From the NCBI RefSeq assembly GCF_023952475.1, contig NZ_JALHRX010000004.1, positions 1 to 64,000 of the forward strand: a stretch of DNA of 64,000 nt. The letters are read 5' to 3'. The notes under the pieces are model-generated. The model worked only from the letters and a program-made list of their open reading frames with translations. It made no database searches and was not told the origin of the DNA. Positions 18,919 through 33,989 of this stretch are shown here, piece after piece. The stretch comes from Cupriavidus sp. WGlv3. GTDB lineage: Bacteria; Pseudomonadota; Gammaproteobacteria; Burkholderiales; Burkholderiaceae. Made by a program: the position numbers and the translations under genes. Every line of letters starts with the position of its first letter. The stretch's first letter is position 1.

Positions 18919-21900
18919 TCACGCGCCCGCCAGCCCTTCGTCCAGGATCGCCGCCACCGCTTGCAGGTTGGGTTCGACGACCAGGTCGAAATGGCTGCAG
19001 GGCACCTCGGCGATGGTCAGGCCGCCCAGCGCGACGCGCCGCCACAACGACAGCGGATCGCCGCGCTGTTGCTGCCTGACCGCGGCGCGCAGATAGAGCA
19101 CCGGGCCCGCGTGGTACGGCCGCGGTCGATACGTCGTCATGGCGCGCACCATGGTCTCGCGCACCAGCCGCAGTGCGGGCGGCAGCGAGTCGGTAAACGC
19201 GTCGGGCTTGCAGGTGATGCCGCCGCGGCGCATGCCGACACCTTCTGCGGCCCGGCGCAGCGCGTACTTCAGATAGCGCACGCGCTGTGCCGCCGGCACC
19301 GCGCGCAGCTTGCGCAGCTGCCAGCCGGGATAGTTCCAGCAGTAGCGCATCCAGGTGCGCCATGGCAGGAAATGCTCGCAGACATAGGTGTCGAGCAGGC
19401 ACAGCAGCTCCACCTGCTCGCCGGCGCGAGTCAGTTGTTGCGCCATCTCGAACACGACCAGCCCGCCGAACGAATAGCCGGCCAGCGCGTATGGACCGCT
19501 CGGCTGCAAGGTGCGGATCTGCTCGATGTAGCTCGCCGCCATGTCCTCGACGCGCCGCTGCGTCGGCTGTTCGCCATCGAGGCCGCGCGCCTGCAGCCCA
19601 TAGACCGGGCGCGAGGTGCGCAGCGCGTTGACCATGGCCCAGCACTCCATTACCGAGCCGCTCGCGCCGTGCACCAGGAACAGCGGCGAGCCGGTGCCGC
19701 TGCGCACGGGCACCAGGTTGGGCGAAGGCCGCGGGGACGCGGCTTCGTCGATCGCCGCGGCCAGGCCGGCAATGGTGGGCGCAAACAGCAGCGTCGCCAG
19801 CGGAATCGTGCGGCCGGTCGACTGGTGAACGTCCGCCAGCAACCGCGCGGCCAGCAGCGAATGGCCGCCGAGGTCGAAGAAGTTGTCGTCGCGGCCGATC
19901 GGGGCGAAGTCGAACAAGCGCTCCCACAGGGCCTGCAAATGGCGTTCGAGCTGCTCGCGCGACGTGCCGGGGGTGGGCAATTCGCGCGAGGCCAGGTTCA
20001 GGCCCGGATGACTGCGGATGGCGTCGAGGCAGTCCGGATTGCGCAACGCCGCGGTATTGCCCACCGGCAGTCCGTTGACCGCATTGCGCGCCGCCGCTTC
20101 GGAGAACTTGCCGTTGTGCGTGACCGGCAGCGCCGGCACGGCCAGGATGCGGTCGGGCACATGGGTTGGCGAGGCGCGGCGCGCCAGGTCGCGGCGCACG
20201 CGCGCGGCCAGCGCGCCGGTCAGCGCGACGCCGTCCTGCAACACCAGCAGCAGCACCATGCGCTGGTCGTACCGCTCCGCATGGGTGCGGTCCGGTGGTG
20301 CCGTGCGCGCGCGCTGCTCGACCACCATCGCCTCGCGGATCTCGGGGATATCGCGCAGCACCCGGTAGATCTCGCCCGGCCCGACATTGACGCCGCGCAC
20401 ATTGAGCACGCCGTCGGACCGGCCATGCAGCCGCGCCGTGCCTTCGGGCGGAAACTCGATCCGGTCGCCGTGGGTCCAGACCCCGGCATTGGCCGAAAAG
20501 TAGGCCTTGTGGAAGCCCTGGCCGTCCGCGTCGCCATAGAAGCCCAGCGGGCGGGACGGGAACGGGTTGGCGCACACCAGCTCGCCGATGCCGCTGGTGG
20601 GCGCGCCGTGTTCCCACGCCTGCACATCGAGCGCCAGGCTCTTGCACTGGGCTTCGCCCGCATAGACCGGCAGGTTTGGATTGCCCAGCACGAAGCAGCC
20701 GAGGATGTCGGTCCCGCCGGAGATCGACTGCAGCGGCAGCGCCTTGACGTGATCGCGCACCCATTCGAACTGCGCATCGAACAGCACCGATCCGGTCGAC
20801 ATCAGCGCGCGCAGTGCGCCCAGGTCGAACTGCTGGCCGGGCACCAGGCCGGCGTCCTCGCACATCTTCAGGTAGGCGGGACTGGTGCCGAACACCGTGA
20901 CGCGCTCGTCCGCGACCAGGCGCCACAGCGCGTCGACCGTGGCGATCGGGCCGTCATAGGTCACGATCTCGACCCCGGACGCCAGCGCCGACAGTTGCCA
21001 GTTCCACATCATCCACGCGCAGGTGGTGTGGAAGTACATGCGGTCGCCGGGCCGCAGGTCGGAGTGCAGCCGGTGCTCCTTCACGTGCTCCAGCAGGCTG
21101 CCGCCGGCGCCGTGCACGATGCACTTGGGCTTGCCGGTGGTGCCCGACGAAAACATGATGAAGAGCGGATGGTTGAACGGAAAGCGCTGGAAGGAAAACT
21201 GCTCCGCATCGCCACGGCCGATCAGGTCCGCCAGCGCATGGACCGGCAGGCTGACGGTGTCCGGCAAGGTGCCGTCGTCGAGCTGGACGATGCCCTGCAG
21301 CGAAGGCAGCGCGGCAGCCACGCCGGCGACGTTGTCCGCCAGCGGGACGCCGGTGTCGAAGGCGCGCTGCGCGGTGTGCGCGAGCAGCAGCCGCGGCGCC
21401 AGCGGCGCGAAGCGATCGAGCAGGGTCTCGATGCTCATCTCGGCCGCGGCCGTGGACAGCGTGGCGCCGAGCGCGGTCACCGCCAGCGCGGCGACGATGG
21501 CCTCGGCGTCGTTGCGCATCACGCCGACCACGCGGTCGCCTTCGCGTAGCCCCAGCTGCGACAAGGCATGTGCCGCGCGCGCGACACGCTCGCGCAGTTC
21601 GCCGCGGGTCAGGCGTTCACGCCGGCCATCGGCGTGGCAGGCGGTCAGCGCCGGTGCGTCCGGGCCCGCGACTTCCAGCCCTAGCAGGTTGTCCGCATAG
21701 TTCAGCAGCAGGTTCGGGAAGAAGCGGGCATGCTCGCAATCGTCGCCGACGCAGACCGGCTCGGGGCTGCCGGACCACGCCAGCCCCTGTGACCACTGCA
21801 GGAAGCAGCGCCAGAAGGTCTGGTATTCCCGTACCGAGTAATCGTGCAGCGCGCCGTAACGATGGAACGACTGGCCGGTACACGCTTGCAGCGCCGCGGT

Positions 21901-22014
21901 GAATGCGGTCATCTGCGACGCCACGGCGCGCTCGGGCGAGCTGACGTAAATGGGAGTGCGACCCTGGTCGACGCTCGGGCAGAACGAGGCGTCCAACAAG
22001 TAAAATCGATCCAT
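18919..22014 (-). CDS. AacS-type adenylating domain / carrier / thioesterase protein (A-T-TE)
   Basis: A 1031-residue three-part enzyme. Residues 1-655 are a complete acetoacetyl-CoA-synthetase-like ANL ligase: an ACAS_N-type leader (DYSVREYQTFWRCFLQW), the AMP loop FSSGTTGKPKCIVHG, the AacS-type SGGTDILGCFVLGNPNLPVYAGE and the catalytic Lys in THNGKFSEAA. Then follow a carrier domain (DNFFDLGGHSLLAARLL, Ser719) and a type I thioesterase (AGYSFGG, Ser848; late His in CSHFDLV). No condensation or ketosynthase domain is present. It probably activates a small keto or hydroxy acid as AMP ester, loads it on its own carrier and releases or couples it with the thioesterase. Overall order equals the A-T-TE furanone/quinone synthetases (RalA, AtrA), but with an AacS-like domain. 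AGGAG precedes ATG 22014. Confidence 0.82.
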   Translation of the reverse strand: MDRFYLLDASFCPSVDQGRTPIYVSSPERAVASQMTAFTAALQACTGQSFHRYGALHDYSVREYQTFWRCFLQWSQGLAWSGSPEPVCVGDDCEHARFFPNLLLNYADNLLGLEVAGPDAPALTACHADGRRERLTRGELRERVARAAHALSQLGLREGDRVVGVMRNDAEAIVAALAVTALGATLSTAAAEMSIETLLDRFAPLAPRLLLAHTAQRAFDTGVPLADNVAGVAAALPSLQGIVQLDDGTLPDTVSLPVHALADLIGRGDAEQFSFQRFPFNHPLFIMFSSGTTGKPKCIVHGAGGSLLEHVKEHRLHSDLRPGDRMYFHTTCAWMMWNWQLSALASGVEIVTYDGPIATVDALWRLVADERVTVFGTSPAYLKMCEDAGLVPGQQFDLGALRALMSTGSVLFDAQFEWVRDHVKALPLQSISGGTDILGCFVLGNPNLPVYAGEAQCKSLALDVQAWEHGAPTSGIGELVCANPFPSRPLGFYGDADGQGFHKAYFSANAGVWTHGDRIEFPPEGTARLHGRSDGVLNVRGVNVGPGEIYRVLRDIPEIREAMVVEQRARTAPPDRTHAERYDQRMVLLLVLQDGVALTGALAARVRRDLARRASPTHVPDRILAVPALPVTHNGKFSEAAARNAVNGLPVGNTAALRNPDCLDAIRSHPGLNLASRELPTPGTSREQLERHLQALWERLFDFAPIGRDDNFFDLGGHSLLAARLLADVHQSTGRTIPLATLLFAPTIAGLAAAIDEAASPRPSPNLVPVRSGTGSPLFLVHGASGSVMECWAMVNALRTSRPVYGLQARGLDGEQPTQRRVEDMAASYIEQIRTLQPSGPYALAGYSFGGLVVFEMAQQLTRAGEQVELLCLLDTYVCEHFLPWRTWMRYCWNYPGWQLRKLRAVPAAQRVRYLKYALRRAAEGVGMRRGGITCKPDAFTDSLPPALRLVRETMVRAMTTYRPRPYHAGPVLYLRAAVRQQQRGDPLSLWRRVALGGLTIAEVPCSHFDLVVEPNLQAVAAILDEGLAGA

Positions 22015-25296: not shown

Positions 25297-27660
25297 TCAC
25301 GACCGCACAAACAACGCCTTCCGGATGATGGCGTGCACGCCCCAGTTGCCGTTGACCACCTGCGTGATGCCAAAATCCACCGCCACCGAGATCAGCGTCA
25401 CCGCCTCGTCCTCGCTCAGCCCCTTGACCGTCATCAGGAAGCGGCGCGTCTTGCGGAACGCATCGCGCATGGCGTCGTCCAGCGTGGACTTGAGGTAGAT
25501 GTGGCTCTGCGCCATCTGGCCCAGCTCGGTCAGGTGATTGGGCGAGCTGAAGCCATGCAGGATCCATTCGTCGGCGGTTTCCACCAGCGGGTAGCTCAGG
25601 TCGGCGAAGGGCGCGCCGCGTTCGATCATGGTGCTCTTGTGCAGGATCAGCTGGAAGTCACCGGTCAGCGAGCATTCGATGGCGGTGCCGCACAGCTCGG
25701 AATCGCCTTGCGACGCATGCGGGTCGCCGATCGACAGCAGTGCGCCCGGCACCGCTACCTTCAGGTAGACGCTGGCGCCGCGCGTGACGCGCCAGTTGTC
25801 GAGGTTGCCGGCGAAGCTGGAGGGCGGGATCGAGTCGATCAGCCCGTCCTGCGCGGGCGCGACGGCGATCACGCCGAAGTGCGGGCGGATCGGGATCTCG
25901 ATATCGCGCAGCACGTCGTGGTTCTTGACGATGGTGTCGTGGTCGACCGGAACCCCGGGATAGTCGATGGTGGGATGCAGCACGCCGAACGGATCGCGCT
26001 GCGGTGTCCAGCGGAAGCTGTAGACGGCGCGGGCGCAGCCGTCGGCGCGCTCGCAATCGATCTCGAACACCGTCACCACTTCGCGCTCGCGCGGCTCGGT
26101 CAGCATGTCGCGGTAGTGGAAGCCCCACCACGTGGCGGCGTTGCTGCCGAAGGCGCGGCCGGCAAAGCGCGGGTTGGCGCACGGGCGCGGGCGCACGTCG
26201 AGGATGCGCACCTCGAGCACGTCGCCCGGCATGGCGCCGCGCACCGCGACCGGGCCCGTGCAGATATGCACGCCGAAACCCTCGCCGGCACCGCGCCCGT
26301 AGACCGAGGCGTCGATCGGGCCGGCGCCGCGGCGGTCGACGTTCTTCTGCTCGGCGGTCCAGTGGAATACGCTTTCGGCGCCGGGATCGCCGTCGATCAT
26401 GCGCTCGCGGTCGTCGGAGGCGTGCTGGGTCAGCGTTTCGATGGTGACGGTGTCGCCCGACATCACTTCCAGCACGGGCGGCAGTTCGTGACTCAGGTAG
26501 CCCCAGTGCACGGTCTTGTCGGTGGCCTGCAGCCAGTGGTGCCGGCCTTCCGGACGCGCCGCGTGCGAGCGGGCCTGGGTGATGGGCACCACCGACGGCG
26601 CGGGCAGCGCGCGTGCGCGCGCACCGTCGTCGGCCGGGACGCGCTGTGGCGCGGGACCACGCCTGGCATCGGCCGGCAGCCCGCGCGACACGTTCAGCGG
26701 CGGGCGCTGCGCGGTCGTGCCCGCGGCCTGCTCGCGGTACGCGCGCGGCGAGATCCCGAACTGCTCGCGAAACGCGTGGCTGAAGTGCGAAGGATCGTTG
26801 AAGCCCCAGCGATAGCAGATGTCGGAGACCGACAGCTTGTCGTACTGCGCATTGGCCAGGTCGGCGCGGCACCGCTCCAGCCGGCTGGTGCGCAGGTAGG
26901 CGGAAAAGCTGCTGCCGGACTTCTCGAACAGCTTCTGCAGGTAGCGGGCCGACATGTGTTCGTCGGCGGCGATGGCGGCGAGGCTCAGCTCGGGCTCGGC
27001 CAGGCGCGCGTCGATGCGGCTGCAGACCCGCGCGAACACCGCCGCGCGCGACGGCGTCATGTCCGCCGGCGCGCTCGGTTGGTTGTCCGCCAGGGCCGCC
27101 CCCAGGCAGGCGACGATGGTGCTGTCGAAGGGCTGCACCGCCCGGTCGTCGGCGGACACCAGGGTGTCGATGCTGGCCGCCATGGACTGCAGCAGGCGCG
27201 CGAACAGTTCCGCCGCGTCGCCGCCCAGCACCAGCGCGGAGCGCGGCAACGGCGCGGTGATGCGCGCGTTCAGCAGGGCCTGGCCGATATGCACGATCAG
27301 CAGGCGGAAACCGGTGATCAGCGCCACCTTGCGCGCCGCGTGCTCGGGCACGCAGACCACCTGGCCGGGATGCAGCGGCTCGCGCAGGTCGGGGCTGGCG
27401 AGGTGCGCTTCGCCCTCGGTCAGCATCAGCAGCATCAGGCCGCGGCCGTCGCCGGCGGTGATCGCCAGCGTCTGCGGCACCGACGCGATGCAGGTCAGCC
27501 CGATGCCGGCGGGCGTGATGCGCGACTGGATCGTGCCGTGCAGGGTGTGGTCGGCGCACAGGCTTTCGCACTGCAGGCGCGCGGCCCTGAGCTCGTCGCG
27601 CCATGCGGCGCCGCGACGGTTGCGCGGATACGCTTCGGTGGAAAAACGCTGCAGATGCAA
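25297..27660 (-). CDS. AraC-type regulator fused to acetamidase/formamidase
   Basis: A 787-residue protein in one uninterrupted frame joining two normally separate proteins. Residues 1-200 are an AraC_binding_2-type sensor domain (FRLLIVHIGQALL); residues 210-311 are a double HTH AraC DNA-binding domain (LSLAAIAADEHMSARYLQKLFEKSGSSF and YRWGFNDPSHFSHAFREQFG). A Pro/Arg-rich linker (312-372) leads to a full-length FmdA/AmdA amide hydrolase domain (373-787) with VHWGYLSHELPPVL, GFGVHICTGPV, LSIGDPHASQGDSELCGTA and ITQVVNGNWGVHA. Such hydrolases turn formamide or acetamide into the acid plus ammonia. The start is TTG 27660, strongly supported by AGGGAGG five bases upstream. An internal GTG in the linker could also yield a free amidase. 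Confidence 0.85.
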   Translation of the reverse strand: MHLQRFSTEAYPRNRRGAAWRDELRAARLQCESLCADHTLHGTIQSRITPAGIGLTCIASVPQTLAITAGDGRGLMLLMLTEGEAHLASPDLREPLHPGQVVCVPEHAARKVALITGFRLLIVHIGQALLNARITAPLPRSALVLGGDAAELFARLLQSMAASIDTLVSADDRAVQPFDSTIVACLGAALADNQPSAPADMTPSRAAVFARVCSRIDARLAEPELSLAAIAADEHMSARYLQKLFEKSGSSFSAYLRTSRLERCRADLANAQYDKLSVSDICYRWGFNDPSHFSHAFREQFGISPRAYREQAAGTTAQRPPLNVSRGLPADARRGPAPQRVPADDGARARALPAPSVVPITQARSHAARPEGRHHWLQATDKTVHWGYLSHELPPVLEVMSGDTVTIETLTQHASDDRERMIDGDPGAESVFHWTAEQKNVDRRGAGPIDASVYGRGAGEGFGVHICTGPVAVRGAMPGDVLEVRILDVRPRPCANPRFAGRAFGSNAATWWGFHYRDMLTEPREREVVTVFEIDCERADGCARAVYSFRWTPQRDPFGVLHPTIDYPGVPVDHDTIVKNHDVLRDIEIPIRPHFGVIAVAPAQDGLIDSIPPSSFAGNLDNWRVTRGASVYLKVAVPGALLSIGDPHASQGDSELCGTAIECSLTGDFQLILHKSTMIERGAPFADLSYPLVETADEWILHGFSSPNHLTELGQMAQSHIYLKSTLDDAMRDAFRKTRRFLMTVKGLSEDEAVTLISVAVDFGITQVVNGNWGVHAIIRKALFVRS

Positions 27661-27756: not shown

Positions 27757-27948
27757 TTAGCCGATCAGCAGCTGCCCCCGCATCGCGGCTACCAGGACAA
27801 AGCCGGCGAAGGTGCCGAAGATGGCGAAGATGCCGCCCAGCACGTTCGGGGCCGGTATCGGCGCCCGTACCGCAGTGTAAAGAAGACCGGTCACCAGGCC
27901 AACGGCCGCGGCCTGCAGTTCGGTACTGCCCAATGCGATTTCCACCAT
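27757..27948 (-). CDS. XapX/DUF1427 small membrane protein, second copy
   Basis: A 63-residue protein with two predicted membrane helices around the motif VRAPIPAPNVLGGIFAI, matching the XapX (DUF1427) family of unknown function. ATG 27948 was selected because GGGGGAA lies just upstream; ATG 27966 is in frame but lacks one. It follows the first XapX gene closely and precedes the regulator-amidase fusion gene. Confidence 0.8.
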   Translation of the reverse strand: MVEIALGSTELQAAAVGLVTGLLYTAVRAPIPAPNVLGGIFAIFGTFAGFVLVAAMRGQLLIG

Positions 27949-28215: not shown

Positions 28216-29241
28216 TCAGCCCTTGGCCTTGGGCGGGAAGATGGTGCGGGGCATGGTGCAGTGGATGCCCTGGGTGCCATCGACCACCTGGGTCACGCCG
28301 AAGTCCGCCGACACGCTCATCAGCGAGTAGGCATCGTCGCGCGACAGCCCTTGTTGCTCGGTCAGCAGGTGGATCATGTCGCGGGCCGCGTTCCTGCCGG
28401 CTTCATCGAGGTCTTCGTGGAAGCCGTGCACCACCCAGCAGTCCGGCGTTTCCAGCAGCGGCGAGGGGAAATGGAAGTCCTTGCGCAGCACGATCTGGAA
28501 CAGCACGTTGAGCGAGGCCTCGATCGCGGTGCCGCTGACTTCGCCGTCGCCTTGCGAAATATGCGGGTCGCCGATCGAGAACAGCGCGCCGTCGACCTGC
28601 ACCGGGTAGTACATGGTGGCGCCCGCGCCGATGCGCCAGTTGTCGATATTGCCGCCATGCAGCCCCGGCTCGACCGTGGTGACGCGGCCGCGCGCGTCGG
28701 GCGCGACGCCGGCGGTGCCAAGGTGCGGGCGCACCGGAACCCGCACGCCGGCCAGCGCAGGCTGGCGACAGCATTCGCGCTCGTCGACCACCTTGCCGGG
28801 GATGGTCAGCTTGCCGGGATAGTCATAGGCGTAGAGCGCATGCGCGGTGTTGGAGGCCTGGTCCAGCTCGTAGATGGTGACGCGTTCCTTCTCGAACTCC
28901 TTGTACAGCTGGCCCCAGTTGGCGGCGACATTGGCGCCGAAGCGGAAGCGCGGAATCATCTGGAGGTAGCGCACCTCGAGCACGTCGCCCGGCTTGGCGT
29001 CTTCGACATAGATCGGCCCGGTCATGATGTGCACGCCCGGGTGGCGGTCGTCGTGCGGAATCTTGCGGTAGATCTCGCGGATGGCGTCGTCCATCATCAG
29101 GTCGGGGGCGTCGCCGGCGTGGTGGGTCACCGCTTCGGCGCGGATCAGGTCGCCGCTTTTCACGGTCAGCGCGGGCGCCTGGGTGGCATCGAAGTAGCCC
29201 CAGTGGATGGTCTCGGGGCGGGCGGGCAGGTCGTGCAGCAT
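28216..29241 (-). CDS. Acetamidase/formamidase family hydrolase
   Basis: A 341-residue single-domain enzyme of the FmdA/AmdA family: IHWGYFDATQAPALTVKSGD at the start, GVHIMTGPIYVEDAKPGDVLEV, GGNIDNWRIGAGATMYYPV, FSIGDPHISQGDGEVSGTAIEA and GVTQVVDGTQGIHC at the end. It hydrolyses short aliphatic amides. It is shorter than the formamidase domain of the fusion protein (about 415 residues) and lacks its internal insert, so the two probably differ in substrate. AAGGAGA precedes ATG 29241. It is the first gene of the operon. Confidence 0.88.
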   Translation of the reverse strand: MLHDLPARPETIHWGYFDATQAPALTVKSGDLIRAEAVTHHAGDAPDLMMDDAIREIYRKIPHDDRHPGVHIMTGPIYVEDAKPGDVLEVRYLQMIPRFRFGANVAANWGQLYKEFEKERVTIYELDQASNTAHALYAYDYPGKLTIPGKVVDERECCRQPALAGVRVPVRPHLGTAGVAPDARGRVTTVEPGLHGGNIDNWRIGAGATMYYPVQVDGALFSIGDPHISQGDGEVSGTAIEASLNVLFQIVLRKDFHFPSPLLETPDCWVVHGFHEDLDEAGRNAARDMIHLLTEQQGLSRDDAYSLMSVSADFGVTQVVDGTQGIHCTMPRTIFPPKAKG

Positions 29242-29648
29242 GGTTGTCTCCTTGGTTTTTTGCCGCCGTATCCACGACCGCATCCGCAGCCGCTAAGCGT
29301 ATGAGCGGCTGGCTTGGTGGAGGTGGTCCGGGATACTGGCGATGCGTGGCAGGCGTTTGTGGCCTGTACCGCTGGCGAGGCTTCGTTGCCGCGCGGTGAG
29401 TCAATACTAGGGATGGCGCGGGCCCGGACAGTAGGGCGATTCCCCCCAAACTCTTGTGTAGCCGCGCACTAAGGTAAACCCGCTGTCGTTCCCGGCCATC
29501 AGTCCAGGATCGGCGCAGTGTTAATTTTTGATTGACACCGTGTCAACGATCCATGGAATTGTCGATCACGCCTTGACAGTGCAAAATCCGGGCGAAGCCC
29601 GGGCCGATCCATCGCAGGCCCGAGAGACACACACAAGGAGATCGCCGC
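29242..29648. promoter_or_regulatory. Divergent control region between amidase operon and CoA-transferase
   Basis: A 407-base interval without a believable ORF. Near the amidase side an inverted repeat AGCCGCT (29288-29294) / AGCGGCT (29304-29310) lies about 47 bases before the start and could be a regulator site. Near the CoA-transferase side the 15-base palindrome TTGACAC-C-GTGTCAA occupies 29532-29546, and its left arm resembles a -35 box. The remainder shows nothing clear. Confidence 0.4.
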
Positions 29649-30863
29649 ATGGCTGACACCACTAATTCCCCGCGCCTGCCGCTGGCCGGCGTGCGCGTGC
29701 TGGACCTGTCCCGCGTGCTGGCCGGACCGATGTGCACGCAGGCGCTGGGCGACCTGGGCGCGGAGGTGATCAAGGTCGAACACCCCGGCCGCGGCGACGA
29801 TACGCGCGACTGGGGCCTGCGCGTGGGCACGCGCAACACGGCTTACTTCAACAGCGCCAACCGCAACAAGCAGTCCATCGGCATCGACCTGCAGCAGCCA
29901 GAAGGCCAGCGCATCGTGCGCGAGCTGGCGGCGAAGTGCGACGTGCTGGTGCAGAACTTCAAGTTCGGCGGCATCGACAAGATGGGGCTGGGCTACGAGG
30001 CGCTGAAGGCGATCAACCCGGGGCTGGTCTATTGCTCCATCACCGGCTACCGCAGCAACGGCCCCGAGGCGACCCGTCCCGGCTACGACCTGGTGGTGCA
30101 GGGCGAGGCCGGCCTGATGGCGCTGAATGGCGAGGAAGGGCAGGGGCCGCTGAAGTTCGGCACGGCGGTGGTGGACATGTTCACCGGCATGTATTCGGCG
30201 CAGGCCGTACTGGCCGCGCTGTACGACCGCCAACGCACCGGCCAGGGCCGCCACGTGGAAATGGCGCTGTACGACTGTGGCCTGATGGTCACGGCCTACT
30301 ATGGCCTGGAGGCGCTGCTGATGGGCGAGGACCCGCCCAAGTACGGCAACGCCCATCCGTCGATCGTGCCCTACGGCGTGTTCGACGCGGCCGATGGTCC
30401 GCTGGTGATCACGGTCGGCAACAACGCGCAGTTCCAGCGCTTCTGCACCGAGGTGATCGAGCGCCCGGACCTGGCCGCCGACGAGCGCTTCGCCACCAAC
30501 ACCGGCCGCTCGGCCAACCGCCAGGCCTTGTTGCCCGAACTGCGCGCCGAGCTGTCACGCCGTCCGCGCGAGCTGCTGCTGGCACGCCTTAGCGCCGCGG
30601 GCATTCCGTGCGGCGAGGTGCTGGGGCTGCTCGAGGCGCTGCGCTCGCGGCGCTCGGCCGAAGCCGGCCTGCTGGCCGAACTGCCCAATCCGGAAACCGG
30701 CCGCGTCGAAGTGCTGGCGCCGCCGTACCGGCTCGACGGCGAGCGCGTGCCGGTGCGCGCCGCGCCGCCGCTGCTGTCGCAGGATACGGAGCGCGTGCTG
30801 GGCGATCTGCTCGGCATGGATGCCGGGCAGGTGGCCGCGCTGAAGGCTGCGGGGGTGGTGTAA
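29649..30863 (+). CDS. Class III CoA-transferase (CaiB/BaiF family)
   Basis: A 404-residue full-length family III CoA-transferase: PLAGVRVLDLSRVLAGPMCTQ, GDLGAEVIKVEHPGRGDDTR, NFKFGGIDKMGLGYEAL, and TAVVDMFTGMYSAQAV that carries the catalytic Asp. These enzymes move CoA between carboxylic acids (often from succinyl-CoA or formyl-CoA). AAGGAGA (29635-29641) precedes ATG 29649. It stands alone and is convergent with the kinase gene, so its acid substrate is not indicated; the promoter is shared with the divergent amidase operon. Confidence 0.9.
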   Translation: MADTTNSPRLPLAGVRVLDLSRVLAGPMCTQALGDLGAEVIKVEHPGRGDDTRDWGLRVGTRNTAYFNSANRNKQSIGIDLQQPEGQRIVRELAAKCDVLVQNFKFGGIDKMGLGYEALKAINPGLVYCSITGYRSNGPEATRPGYDLVVQGEAGLMALNGEEGQGPLKFGTAVVDMFTGMYSAQAVLAALYDRQRTGQGRHVEMALYDCGLMVTAYYGLEALLMGEDPPKYGNAHPSIVPYGVFDAADGPLVITVGNNAQFQRFCTEVIERPDLAADERFATNTGRSANRQALLPELRAELSRRPRELLLARLSAAGIPCGEVLGLLEALRSRRSAEAGLLAELPNPETGRVEVLAPPYRLDGERVPVRAAPPLLSQDTERVLGDLLGMDAGQVAALKAAGVV

Positions 30864-30876
30864 GGGCCGGCGCGGG

Positions 30877-32214
30877 CTACGGCGCGTCAGGCTGCTGCGG
30901 CTCCGGCCACTTGCCCTTGCGCGGGAAGCGCATGTCGAACTCGGTAAACACGTGTTCCTCGGAGCGGCAGCTGATGCCCGCGCCCCAGCTGCCCAGCACC
31001 TTCTGGCAGAACGCCAGCCCGATGCCGGTGCCGCGGTGCGCGGGGTAGGAGAAGAAGGGCTGGAACATCCGCGCCAGCACCTGCGGCGGCACGCCGGTGG
31101 CGGTGTCGCGGAACACCACGTGGACCGCGTCGGACTCGACCTCGCAGCGGATATGGATGGTGCCCTTGCCGGCGCGCCGGATCGCTTCCAGCGCGTTCTT
31201 CAGCAGGTTGGTCGTGACCAGGCCGAACAGCTGCGCGTTGCCCATCACGTAGGCGCGGCCGGGCAGGTCCACCGTGACCCGCTCCAGGTCGCCGGGCTCG
31301 AACGGAAAGCGGCCGACCGCGTCGCGGATCACCTCGCCCACTTCGAACAGTGCCTGCGTGGCGTTTTCCGGGTTCTTGGAGTTGGCCACCAGCAGCTCGA
31401 TGCTGTTGCTGATATGGGCCAGGTCTGATTCCATCCGGGCCACGGCCTGCATCAGGCCGTCGCGCTGCGGCGTGTCCTGGTCCAGCGCCGCCGGCAGCCG
31501 GGCCTTCAGGCCGCGCGCGGTCATGGCCAGGCTGGTCAGCGGCGTGCGCAGCTCATGCGCGACGGTCGCCAGCGCGGCGGCCATGCCGCGCCGCTTCTGC
31601 TCGGCCAGCAGCTGGCGGTCCATCTTGATCACCACCAGCACCGCGATCACGAAGCCGATCACCGGCAACTGCAGCAGCACCGGCTCCCACGGGATGCCGC
31701 CCATGGAATTGCCCGCCAGCACGAACAGCGCAATCGCCGCCGCGGCGCCCGAAAACAGGGCGATAGTGGCGAAGGCGGTGTTGAAGTGATACAGGATCAC
31801 CACCGCGATGATGACCGATTCGGCCCACACCATCGAGCCGCCGTTCTCCAGGTAGAAGAAGATAAAGGCGAACGGCAGGCCTACCGTAATGGCGAAGAGC
31901 GCATACGGCGGCAGCCAGCGCCGGCCCGAGAACGCCGAGGCGAACAGCAGCGGCACGAACAGCGCGGTGCAGGCCAGCCGCAGCCACAGGTTTTCATAGG
32001 GCTGCGGGAACACATAGGACCAGATCACGAAGTACAGCGGATGGCCCACCACGCCCAGCGCCCCCACCATCTGGATCCGGCGCAGGCGGATGACGCTCTC
32101 TTCGTCCAGCAGCGTGGCCCGCGCGGCGGTCTCGAACACGGCCTGCCATGCCTGGCGGGCCAGCCCGGCAAGGGTGGGGCGGCCGTCCTCCGCTTGCGCT
32201 ACCTTTGCATCCAT
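30877..32214 (-). CDS. LqsS/CqsS-type membrane sensor histidine kinase
   Basis: A 445-residue kinase with six predicted N-terminal helices (residues 50-197) instead of a periplasmic sensor, then HisKA with ATVAHELRTPLTSL (His220), the N-box LLKNALEAI and G-box GTGIGLAF. It lacks the C-terminal receiver of Vibrio CqsS and so looks like Legionella LqsS. Located 51 bases downstream of a CqsA/LqsA synthase gene on the same strand, it is the predicted receptor for the alpha-hydroxyketone signal made by that enzyme. No response regulator of the LqsR type is adjacent. Confidence 0.85.
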   Translation of the reverse strand: MDAKVAQAEDGRPTLAGLARQAWQAVFETAARATLLDEESVIRLRRIQMVGALGVVGHPLYFVIWSYVFPQPYENLWLRLACTALFVPLLFASAFSGRRWLPPYALFAITVGLPFAFIFFYLENGGSMVWAESVIIAVVILYHFNTAFATIALFSGAAAAIALFVLAGNSMGGIPWEPVLLQLPVIGFVIAVLVVIKMDRQLLAEQKRRGMAAALATVAHELRTPLTSLAMTARGLKARLPAALDQDTPQRDGLMQAVARMESDLAHISNSIELLVANSKNPENATQALFEVGEVIRDAVGRFPFEPGDLERVTVDLPGRAYVMGNAQLFGLVTTNLLKNALEAIRRAGKGTIHIRCEVESDAVHVVFRDTATGVPPQVLARMFQPFFSYPAHRGTGIGLAFCQKVLGSWGAGISCRSEEHVFTEFDMRFPRKGKWPEPQQPDAP

Positions 32215-32265: not shown

Positions 32266-33516
32266 TCAGGACTTGCGCCGGGCCCGGCGCGTCGAGGACC
32301 ACTCTTCCAGCCGGACTTCATCGCGGATGCTGGCGAGCACGCCGACCAGGCGGTCGATTTCGGTGGCGCCAAGTTTCGCATGCAGCGTAAGTCGCATCAA
32401 TGCCCGGTTCTTTGGCGTCGCCGGCGCACAGAATACCGCGCCGAAGATGCCGCGCCGCTGCAGCGCGTCGCGCAGCACCTTCACCTGCGGCTCGGAGCCC
32501 GCCTCCAGCCCGATGATCTGCTCCGAGCCCTCGCTGATGTTGTAGCCCAGGGCGGCGATCGCGCCCCGGGTCTCGCGGGTGATCGCATGCAGGCGCGCGC
32601 GGCGCTGGTCCGCGGCGGCAATGAAGTCCGTGACCGCGTCGAACCACGCGATCTCGTGGCGCAGCAGGCCGGAGCTGAAGATCGCCGGCCGCGATTCCAC
32701 CGCGAAGAAATCCTTGAAGGCGGTGGAGCAGGCCACGTAGCCGGCGCGCCCGGCAAAGGCCTTGGCCAGCGACGCGGTGCGGAAATGCACGCGCTCAGCC
32801 AGCCCCAGCGCCGGCACCAGGCCGCCGCCGCGCGGGCCATGCGTGCCCAGCGAGTGCGATTCGTCCACCACCAGCACGCAGCCGGACGCTTCGGCCAGTT
32901 CGACATAGTCCACCAGCGGCGCCACGCTGCCGGTGGTGCTGTAGACCGAATCCACCATGATCACGCCCGGGCCGAAGCGCTCCAGCTGGCGGCGCACGTG
33001 CTCGCAATCGTTATGGCGCACCGGCACCGCCTGCGCGCCCGCGGCGATGATGCCTTCCCACAGCGAGGCATGCCCGTTCATGTCGATGTAGACCGGAATG
33101 CCGGGGCCGGCGATGCACTGCACCAGGCCCACGTTGGCGGCCCAGCCGGACTGCGCGATCAGGCCGTCCTCGGCCTGCATCAGGTCGGCGATCTTGCGTT
33201 CGACCCGGCGCTGGGGCGTATCGCCGTGCATGAACACGGACGACATCAGCAACTCCGGCGCGTCATCGACAAAGGCCCGCGCCTGCGCCTGCACCAGCGA
33301 GGCCTCGCCCAGCAGGCACAGGTAGTCGTTGCTGCTCAGGTGCAGCGCGTCGGGTCCGGGAGTAAGTCCGTGCAGCAGGTGGTCTCCGCCCCAGAGCTTG
33401 CCCATCCGTTCTTCGAAATGTTGTGCCATGCGCGTGGTGATCCAGGACGGCAGCGTGGGCGCCTTGGGGCGGGAGGCATGGTGTCGGAATTGCGCAGGCT
33501 GGGCTTCGGAGAACAT
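32266..33516 (-). CDS. Alpha-hydroxyketone autoinducer synthase (CqsA/LqsA family)
   Basis: A 416-residue PLP-dependent aminotransferase of the alpha-oxoamine-synthase fold with CqsA-type wording: HLSSNDYLCLLG, FMHGDTPQRRVERKIADLM, VDESHSLGTHGP (Asp218) and FRTASLAKAFAGRAGY (Schiff-base Lys252). CqsA/LqsA enzymes condense an acyl-CoA with S-adenosylmethionine or an amino acid to give CAI-1 or LAI-1-like signals. ATG 33516 is supported by GAAGGA eight bases upstream; the 52-residue longer frame is Arg/Pro-rich and unlikely. The kinase following it fits a synthase-sensor pair. Confidence 0.88.
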   Translation of the reverse strand: MFSEAQPAQFRHHASRPKAPTLPSWITTRMAQHFEERMGKLWGGDHLLHGLTPGPDALHLSSNDYLCLLGEASLVQAQARAFVDDAPELLMSSVFMHGDTPQRRVERKIADLMQAEDGLIAQSGWAANVGLVQCIAGPGIPVYIDMNGHASLWEGIIAAGAQAVPVRHNDCEHVRRQLERFGPGVIMVDSVYSTTGSVAPLVDYVELAEASGCVLVVDESHSLGTHGPRGGGLVPALGLAERVHFRTASLAKAFAGRAGYVACSTAFKDFFAVESRPAIFSSGLLRHEIAWFDAVTDFIAAADQRRARLHAITRETRGAIAALGYNISEGSEQIIGLEAGSEPQVKVLRDALQRRGIFGAVFCAPATPKNRALMRLTLHAKLGATEIDRLVGVLASIRDEVRLEEWSSTRRARRKS

Positions 33517-33989
33517 CGGTAGTCCTTCAACAGGTCGGATGAGAATCGGAGGGAATCGGCAAGGCTTGCATGGCGCCTGCGCCAAAGCCAGCCGCCCATG
33601 CGTGGGGGGTGCCGCGCGCAACGTCTCCCCATGGCGCGCCGTGTGCCGGCATGCCATAGGGGCCCGGTTCATGTAGCGACCACTGTGCCAGTCTTAGCCA
33701 AGGATTGTGACGGGACTTCCACCAATCCCAACGTCTGCTTGCAGACTAGGTTGGCCAGATAAAACGGTCACGCGGCAGCGCAAGGCTGCGGGTATTCAGG
33801 GAGGATTTTTTGCACAGAATATGCTCTATTGAGCACTTGTGCGGGGTTTGCGAAGCCGGGCGCGGGACGGCCCGGTGCGCTGTGATGGAAGGTAAGGTGT
33901 GCCGCGGCGCGGCACTGGCGGCCGCGCATCGGGTGGGGGGGCGGCTGTGCGCACGCACCGCCGCCCCGCCGTAGTGCATCGATCCGGCA
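33517..33989. promoter_or_regulatory. Control region upstream of the autoinducer synthase
   Basis: A 473-base gap without a credible ORF. Two compact inverted repeats are visible: GTCTGC-TT-GCAGAC at 33733-33746 and TGCTC-TATT-GAGCA at 33822-33835, the latter in AT-rich DNA suitable for a promoter. At 33938-33967 an 8-bp GC-rich hairpin (GGGGCGGC/GCCGCCCC) follows the acyl-CoA dehydrogenase stop. These may serve cell-density control of the synthase gene. Confidence 0.4.

What the first reader, a model, noticed from the sequence alone, without database searches (positions are those of the whole stretch)
25297..27660. AraC-type regulator and formamidase joined in one 787-residue protein
The frame is unbroken from a sensor domain and complete double HTH (residues 1-311) through a Pro/Arg-rich linker to a full-length FmdA/AmdA amidase (373-787). 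Such hydrolases and AraC regulators are normally separate proteins, so a regulator that carries the enzyme for the probable inducer could sense substrate turnover directly. The TTG start has an excellent AGGGAGG site, so the fusion is unlikely to be an annotation accident.
Basis: partly seen in the sequence, partly recalled or inferred. Interest (0 to 1): 0.8.

Follow-up and report, generated by a model that had tools for sequence, protein, structure and literature searches.

The report
Gene switch fused to amidase sensor
One bacterial protein joins an AraC-type gene switch to a domain of the acetamidase/formamidase enzyme family; the same joined protein occurs in scattered Proteobacteria, usually near a separate amidase gene, and its enzyme-like half likely serves to sense amides so that the switch would turn those neighbouring genes on.

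Summary
The fusion is real and a conserved class: 43 of 299 genomes sampled from the window's family hold it full length in one open frame, and none there showed the halves as two separate intact genes (matches to E 1e-60). Three results shape the reading. (1) Residue 412 is Gln in 170 of 172 fused rows but His in 44 of 44 unfused rows of the loci and 103 of 111 database rows, while 14 of 17 inspected columns never vary in fused rows. (2) The amidase half is under stronger purifying selection than the cupin-like sensor domain. (3) A conserved two-part site lies upstream of partner amidase or transporter genes, in the window at 29455-29481, at fixed spacing to a -10-like box in 19 loci. I read the protein as an amide-responsive activator whose recruited amidase domain is the receptor. 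DNA binding, activation, amide binding and loss of catalysis are untested. New variant of a known kind (enzyme fold on a one-component regulator); my searches listed no paper on it.

The parts
25297..27660 (-). AraC-amidase fusion gene, 787 aa, TTG start
27061..27660 (-). residues 1-200: cupin-like AraC sensor/dimerisation domain
26725..27060 (-). residues 201-312: double helix-turn-helix DNA-binding domain
26545..26724 (-). residues 313-372: variable Pro/Arg-rich linker; R326, G327 and P329 invariant in 40 aligned fused proteins
   Evidence: pLDDT under 50 for 316-370; invariant columns
25300..26544 (-). residues 373-787: FmdA/AmdA-family domain
26425..26427 (-). codon of residue 412: Gln in fused proteins, His in unfused relatives
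   Evidence: codon CAG read
27757..27948 (-). small XapX-domain protein (63 aa) between the two amidase genes
   Evidence: TIGR03510 58.5 bits, cut-off 27.8; no Pfam match
28216..29241 (-). unfused partner amidase ('short' lineage); likely start at 29241 (ORF listed to 29283)
   Evidence: PF03069 110.6 bits; start and ribosome site conserved
29455..29481 (-). predicted operator: GGGTTTACCTTAGTGCGCGGCTACACA (ACAAG continues to 29453)
   Evidence: only match in the window, none in 100 shuffles, with a pattern read off an alignment that includes the window; one match in the own genome
29404..29409 (-). predicted -10 box TAGTAT, 72 bases from the start of the operator block
   Evidence: TAnnAT at the same spacing in 19 of 19 aligned loci

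Best explanation
The gene encodes one 787-residue chain that joins an AraC-type regulator to an acetamidase/formamidase-family domain, and it likely works as an amide-responsive activator of the neighbouring amidase operon, with the amidase domain predicted to be the amide receptor rather than the main enzyme. Shown: one open frame, a conserved fusion, an unfused amidase nearby in nearly all loci examined, a fused-specific His-to-Gln residue with the other motif residues kept, strong purifying selection on the amidase half, and a conserved two-part site upstream of amidase or transporter genes. Inferred: the protein binds that site as a dimer; an amide binds the amidase domain but is hydrolysed slowly or not at all because of the Gln; the signal passes through the linker to the double HTH; RNA polymerase is recruited to a promoter without a good -35 box; the operon, which in the window likely includes the regulator's own gene, is induced; and the partner amidase then removes the inducer.
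For: Fusion. Unfused amidase nearby: 40 of 40 testable loci (many are close relatives, e.g. 9 Pandoraea) and 8 of 8 fetched plasmid loci (in L091 only at the edge of the stretch). The partner belongs to three lineages, with 4 changes of lineage on the tree of fused domains (24 labelled rows), so the regulator keeps its domain while the enzyme is exchanged. Residue 412; in the 8 plasmid loci, not seen before, Gln in 7 of 8 fused and His in 7 of 7 readable partners. Selection. Operator: 0.99 bits per column over a 105-base block against 0.24-0.27 in upstream blocks (13 representative loci), and TAnnAT at fixed spacing in 19 of 19 loci; in Cupriavidus one site per genome in 13 of 16 genomes with the full fusion, 2 of 4 with a remnant, 0 of 40 with neither; related site CAAGnnTTnGTGCGn7ACAAG with 2 or fewer mismatches outside the fusion gene in 24 of 33 other loci against 0 of 156 shuffles, 45-130 bases upstream of a plausible start in the 12 places checked. 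Amide context: SBP_bac_3 and permease-ATPase transporter genes, nitrile hydratase in L097, Nit6803-family nitrilase in L089.
Against: The other motif residues are intact (14 columns identical in 172 of 172 fused rows), so the domain may still hydrolyse amides. I could not place residue 412 in the active site: no coordinates were available. Two fused rows (P0054, L035) and L093 keep His. L086 and L089 hold no second FmdA gene in the stretches read, so there the fused domain may be the only local amidase of this family. The cupin-like domain could be the receptor instead. Nine of the 33 loci showed no good site (L066 only inside the coding region; some stretches are short), and of 8 plasmid loci only 2 had a site with 2 mismatches (1 of 160 shuffles does) and 2 more with 3 (18 of 160 shuffles have 3 as best). 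In the family scan the pattern also has 23 matches away from fusion loci, about as many as the reversed control, 18. The single origin of the fusion is weakly supported (45/65). No transporter gene was among the seven window genes scanned.
Confidence: 0.52

Rival explanations
1. Trigger enzyme: the fused amidase is active and destroys the inducer, so the regulator times its own switching-off by substrate turnover.
For: Fourteen motif columns are kept in all 172 fused rows; dN/dS of the amidase half is 0.034-0.060; in L086 and L089 no other FmdA gene lies in the stretches read.
Against: The fused-specific His-to-Gln change and a separate amidase in 40 of 40 testable loci make a second enzyme in the regulator look redundant.
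Confidence: 0.25
2. Plain bifunctional protein: regulator and amidase are fused for joint expression, the cupin-like domain senses, and the amidase half does not signal.
For: An AraC-type sensor fold is present (Pfam match below cut-off) and the linker is long and predicted disordered.
Against: The sensor domain changes about 3 to 8 times faster at amino-acid level (dN) than the amidase half in the ten pairs; fused and unfused amidases differ at one nearly fixed residue.
Confidence: 0.13
3. The amidase half is a structural or oligomerisation scaffold that neither binds nor cleaves amides.
For: One metagenomic protein, P0333 (474 aa), has an HTH half and an amidase half that lacks the His and QGDSE of the motif.
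Against: Fourteen motif columns are identical in 172 of 172 fused rows, which a scaffold would not need.
Confidence: 0.07
4. Artefact: a missed stop, frameshift or internal start joins two genes on paper only.
For: Four of 60 genus genomes hold only C-terminal remnants; P0121 and P0309 are a split version.
Against: Full-length open frames in 43 of 299 family genomes; 16 of 17 plasmid records with at least 80% of the query covered in one place; conserved TTG start; the split looks like a frameshift.
Confidence: 0.03

Closest known systems
MocR/GabR regulators (GntR-type HTH plus aminotransferase fold)
   Same: An enzyme fold joined through a linker to a DNA-binding domain; in GabR gamma-amino butyrate binds and changes the conformation (titles and starts of abstracts in the search listing only: PMC6917764, PMC5734734).
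   Different: Different HTH family (AraC, not GntR) and different enzyme fold (FmdA/AmdA, not PLP aminotransferase); here a cupin-like sensor fold is also present.
AraC/XylS regulators, nearest NCBIfam model FeaR (NF007243)
   Same: Double HTH and cupin-like N-terminal fold; FeaR model 113.1 bits.
   Different: Below the FeaR cut-off of 199; a 415-residue enzyme-family domain follows the HTH.
3b9t, predicted acetamidase/formamidase of Methylobacillus flagellatus, molecule named 'Twin-arginine translocation pathway signal protein'
   Different: Unfused; has His at the position of Gln 412 (alignment); its deposited name points to export, while the fused domain sits inside a regulator.
Classical formamidase FmdA (NCBIfam NF045496)
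   Same: Same Pfam family.
   Different: 56.5 bits against a cut-off of 500, too far to transfer a substrate.
Database entries named 'acetamidase/formamidase/AraC-like DNA-binding protein'
   Same: The same architecture, under a name given by a sequence source.
   Different: A label only; no functional description found in my searches.

Membership tests
AraC/XylS transcription regulators | AraC-type double HTH domain | tested here: met
AraC/XylS transcription regulators | N-terminal cupin-like effector domain | tested here: inconclusive
AraC/XylS transcription regulators | binds repeated half-sites near the target promoter | tested here: inconclusive
   conserved two-part site upstream of likely targets; no binding data
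FmdA_AmdA (PF03069) | profile match above curated cut-off | tested here: met
   94 bits, cut-off 27
FmdA_AmdA (PF03069) | amide hydrolysis | not testable with these tools
   14 of 17 inspected columns identical in 172 of 172 fused rows; residue 412 changed
Formamidase FmdA (NCBIfam equivalog NF045496) | score over 500 bits | tested here: not met
   56.5 bits
FeaR (NCBIfam NF007243) | score over 199 bits | tested here: not met
   113.1 bits
MocR/GabR | GntR HTH plus aminotransferase domain | tested here: not met
   neither domain in the Pfam scan
Trigger enzymes (active enzymes that also regulate) | measured catalysis by the regulator | not testable with these tools
   needs an enzyme assay

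The most novel reading that the evidence does not exclude
An amide-hydrolysing enzyme was captured by an AraC regulator and turned into its receptor largely by one residue, His to Gln at position 412, while its pocket stayed intact; this enzyme-turned-sensor then spread through Alpha-, Beta- and Gammaproteobacteria as the control module of exchangeable amide, nitrile and transporter operons, reading one kind of operator in most of them.
Probability: 0.4. Interest if true: 0.78.

Novelty: new variant of a known kind. Interest (0 to 1): 0.62.

Why it matters
If true, it gives an example, independent of MocR/GabR, of a metabolic enzyme turned into the receptor of a transcription regulator, with an unfused relative still nearby for direct comparison. 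One residue nearly separates the two classes, so how an enzyme becomes a sensor could be tested with a single change. It would also give an amide-controlled switch with a predicted operator, and a substrate clue for an amidase subfamily that has a solved structure (3b9t) but no assigned function that I found.

Tried and rejected
Rejected: annotation accident, missed stop or internal start. Rejected: classical formamidase. Not decided: enzyme or receptor; residue 412 could not be placed in the structure because no coordinates are handed out. Paper searches for active-site residues (5, 5 and 1 papers listed) gave nothing that describes this subfamily's site; of PMC10781810 I read 12 passages only, and they give no metal-site residues for FmdA. 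Paper searches for the fusion itself: 64 papers, 25 listed; 3; none; no listed title or start of abstract is about it. The library holds open-licence papers only.

How residue 412 was chosen: a comparison of all columns in 67 fused and 39 unfused long domains showed ten columns nearly fixed in the unfused long domains with another commonest residue in the fused ones; 412 was the only one nearly fixed in the fused too (98.5%; the others 43-70%). The count uses a larger set that overlaps this one, so it is not blind; the plasmid loci are. A first tally by regular expression mislabelled some fused proteins as unfused and misread L070; it is replaced by the alignment-based count and, for that genome, (it reads QH). 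Of the 8 unfused database rows with Gln, P0121, P0124 and P0198 show signs of being pieces of fusions, P0130 likely too; P0125, P0126 and P0127 are 77-79% identical on contigs of at most 2.6 kb; P0165 remains an exception.

The -10/-35 reading and the half-site reading are by eye on alignments; the promoter scan tool was not run. The 26-base pattern was written after seeing several of the loci it was scored on, so one search is not a blind test; its L066 match lies inside the fusion gene and was dropped from the count (25 to 24 of 33 loci; L070 and L086 are one genome). The family scan is closer to a test: 32 matches in 30 of 299 genomes; the 2 perfect ones and 7 of the 30 with one mismatch lie within 4.5 kb of a fusion gene (two of these genomes, G030 and G124, had been seen before); the other 23 lie elsewhere, and the reversed control gave 18. 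The plasmid test is blind and mixed. The fusion scans used E limits of 1e-60 or 1e-100, so a distant lone AraC half would not show. L001, L026 and L028, cut by contig ends, were left out of the 40-of-40 count. Structural matches beyond the best 50 were not seen.

Full report

The fusion is a conserved class. The 120 homologues listed, of 2646 scored, all carry both domains. In whole genomes: 16 of 60 in the genus hold it full length and 4 hold only a remnant; in the family sample 43 of 299 hold it full length in one frame, one (G145) in two matches within one frame, 2 as remnants; in the class sample only the window's own genome of 370; in the phylum sample 8 of 397, the window's own included. 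So it is scattered, not universal. Of 17 plasmid records with a match, 16 hold at least 80% of it in one place; the records come from Rhizobium, Sinorhizobium, Novosphingobium, Variovorax, Paraburkholderia, Caballeronia and others. At the E limits used, no genome in these scans showed the halves as two intact genes. A tree of 134 amidase domains puts the fused ones in one group nested among unfused 'long' amidases, together with two rows that are pieces of fusions (P0121, P0127); a smaller careful tree of 66 rows keeps them on one side of a branch, but with weak support, 45/65, so one origin is favoured, not shown.

An unfused amidase stands nearby. Of the 43 loci with the fusion (L001-L043), 3 are cut by contig ends; all other 40 have an unfused FmdA-family gene within about 3 kb. 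Many of these are close relatives, such as nine Pandoraea. All 8 fetched plasmid loci have one too, though in L091 only at the edge of the stretch. Exceptions are L086, beside TRAP transporter genes, and L089, beside an ABC transporter, a MocR-type regulator and a Nit6803-family nitrilase; both genomes have FmdA-family genes elsewhere. The partner is one of three lineages: 'short' (as in the window), 'long' with a twin-arginine-type N-terminus in many cases (recognised by eye), or a third long form without one. The tree of fused domains needs 4 changes of partner class over 24 labelled rows. Neighbouring transporter genes in some loci (SBP_bac_3 and permease-ATPase) and, in L097, nitrile hydratase genes point to amides or nitriles as substrates; none of the seven window genes scanned is a transporter.

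One residue nearly separates fused from unfused. Residue 412 (window numbering) is Gln in 170 of 172 fused rows and His in 12 of 12, 6 of 6 and 26 of 26 rows of the three partner lineages, and in 103 of 111 database rows; at least three of the eight exceptions show signs of being pieces of fusions. Fourteen of the 17 inspected columns are identical in all 172 fused rows. The column was found in a smaller, overlapping set, where it was the only one near-fixed to different residues in the two classes. In eight plasmid loci not used before, 7 of 8 fused proteins have Gln and 7 of 7 readable partners have His. The residue lies one position after the Thr that stands where classical members have Asp, as aligned; whether it is catalytic is not known. 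dN/dS in ten pairs is 0.034-0.060 for the amidase half, 0.022-0.126 for the HTH, 0.115-0.266 for the sensor domain and 0.149-0.603 for the linker: the amidase half is kept about as tightly as the DNA-binding part.

A predicted operator. Upstream of the partner amidase, 19 loci of Cupriavidus, Paraburkholderia, Pandoraea, Variovorax and one unnamed relative share a block that begins GGGTTwACsnTAGT with few deviations; in the 10 loci that are not Pandoraea it continues to CACAAG. A TAnnAT box follows 72 bases after its start in all 19, and by eye no -35 consensus is seen. The genus-averaged information over 13 representative loci is 0.99 bits per column against 0.24-0.27 in upstream blocks. In the window it is at 29455-29481. 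In the genus the Cupriavidus form occurs once per genome in 15 of 60 genomes: 13 of the 16 with the full fusion (in all 13 within 2 kb of the fusion gene), 2 of the 4 with a remnant (in G023 on another contig), 0 of the 40 with neither; the reversed control pattern has none. Shared descent of the locus explains part of this, but not the sharing across genera at fixed spacing. Loci with other partners carry a related site, CAAGnnTTnGTGCGn7ACAAG, in front of the partner amidase (Methylophaga, Nitrincola, Delftia and others) or of the transporter genes (L016, L021-L025, L087-L089) or of the fusion gene itself (L086): 24 of 33 such loci with 2 or fewer mismatches outside the fusion gene, against 0 of 156 shuffles, with plausible start codons 45-130 bases downstream in the 12 places checked. 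In the family scan both perfect matches and 7 of 30 one-mismatch matches lie at fusion loci; the other 23 compare with 18 for the reversed control. In the blind plasmid test 2 of 8 had 2 mismatches and 2 more had 3, all in front of partner or transporter genes; 1 and 18 of 160 shuffles had 2 and 3 as their best. The repeated ACAAG about 22 bases apart looks like the tandem half-sites of AraC-type regulators (a comparison from general knowledge).

Mechanism. I take the protein for an amide-responsive activator. An amide binds the amidase pocket, the linker passes the signal, the dimer on the tandem site recruits RNA polymerase to a promoter without a -35 box, and the partner amidase, a transporter where present and, in the window, the regulator itself are made; the partner then consumes the inducer. 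Each of these steps is inferred. The main rival is that the fused domain is still an active amidase that times the switch by turnover.

Novelty. Enzyme folds as receptor domains of one-component regulators are known (MocR/GabR, listing). I found no paper on an AraC-FmdA protein in the open-licence library (listings only), although a sequence source names the architecture. I file it as a new variant of a known kind.

Noticed in passing
window 32266-33672 (-) and 30877-32214 (-): A class I/II aminotransferase-family protein and a histidine kinase lie next to each other; from memory this resembles an alpha-hydroxyketone signalling pair, not tested.
   Followed up: no
window 18919-22014 (-): A 1031-aa protein with AMP-binding, carrier and thioesterase domains, NRPS-like.
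   Followed up: no
window 29649-30863 (+): A CoA-transferase family III gene starts divergently from the amidase operon; it was not among the neighbours shared across genera.
   Followed up: partly
L044-L047; G023, G029, G037, G038: Several Cupriavidus genomes keep only C-terminal remnants of the fusion; the operator pattern is still present in G023 and G038.
   Followed up: partly
P0333 (474 aa, metagenomic): A protein with an HTH half and an amidase half that lacks the His and QGDSE of the motif: either decay or a step further towards a pure sensor.
   Followed up: no
L089 3257-12962: ABC transporter, the fusion, a MocR/EhuR-like regulator, a Nit6803-family nitrilase and an MSMEG_0568-family radical SAM protein in one cluster.
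   Followed up: partly
L097 1-9358: Nitrile hydratase subunits and a GTP-binding protein next to the amidase-transporter genes and the fusion in a Caballeronia plasmid.
   Followed up: partly
L088 near 10185 and 10309: Two operator-like sites back to back between divergent genes, one facing the short amidase, one facing a transporter-type binding-protein gene.
   Followed up: partly
fused proteins, residues 326-329: R326, G327 and P329 just after the HTH are invariant in 40 of 40 aligned fused proteins although the rest of the linker is hypervariable.
   Followed up: no
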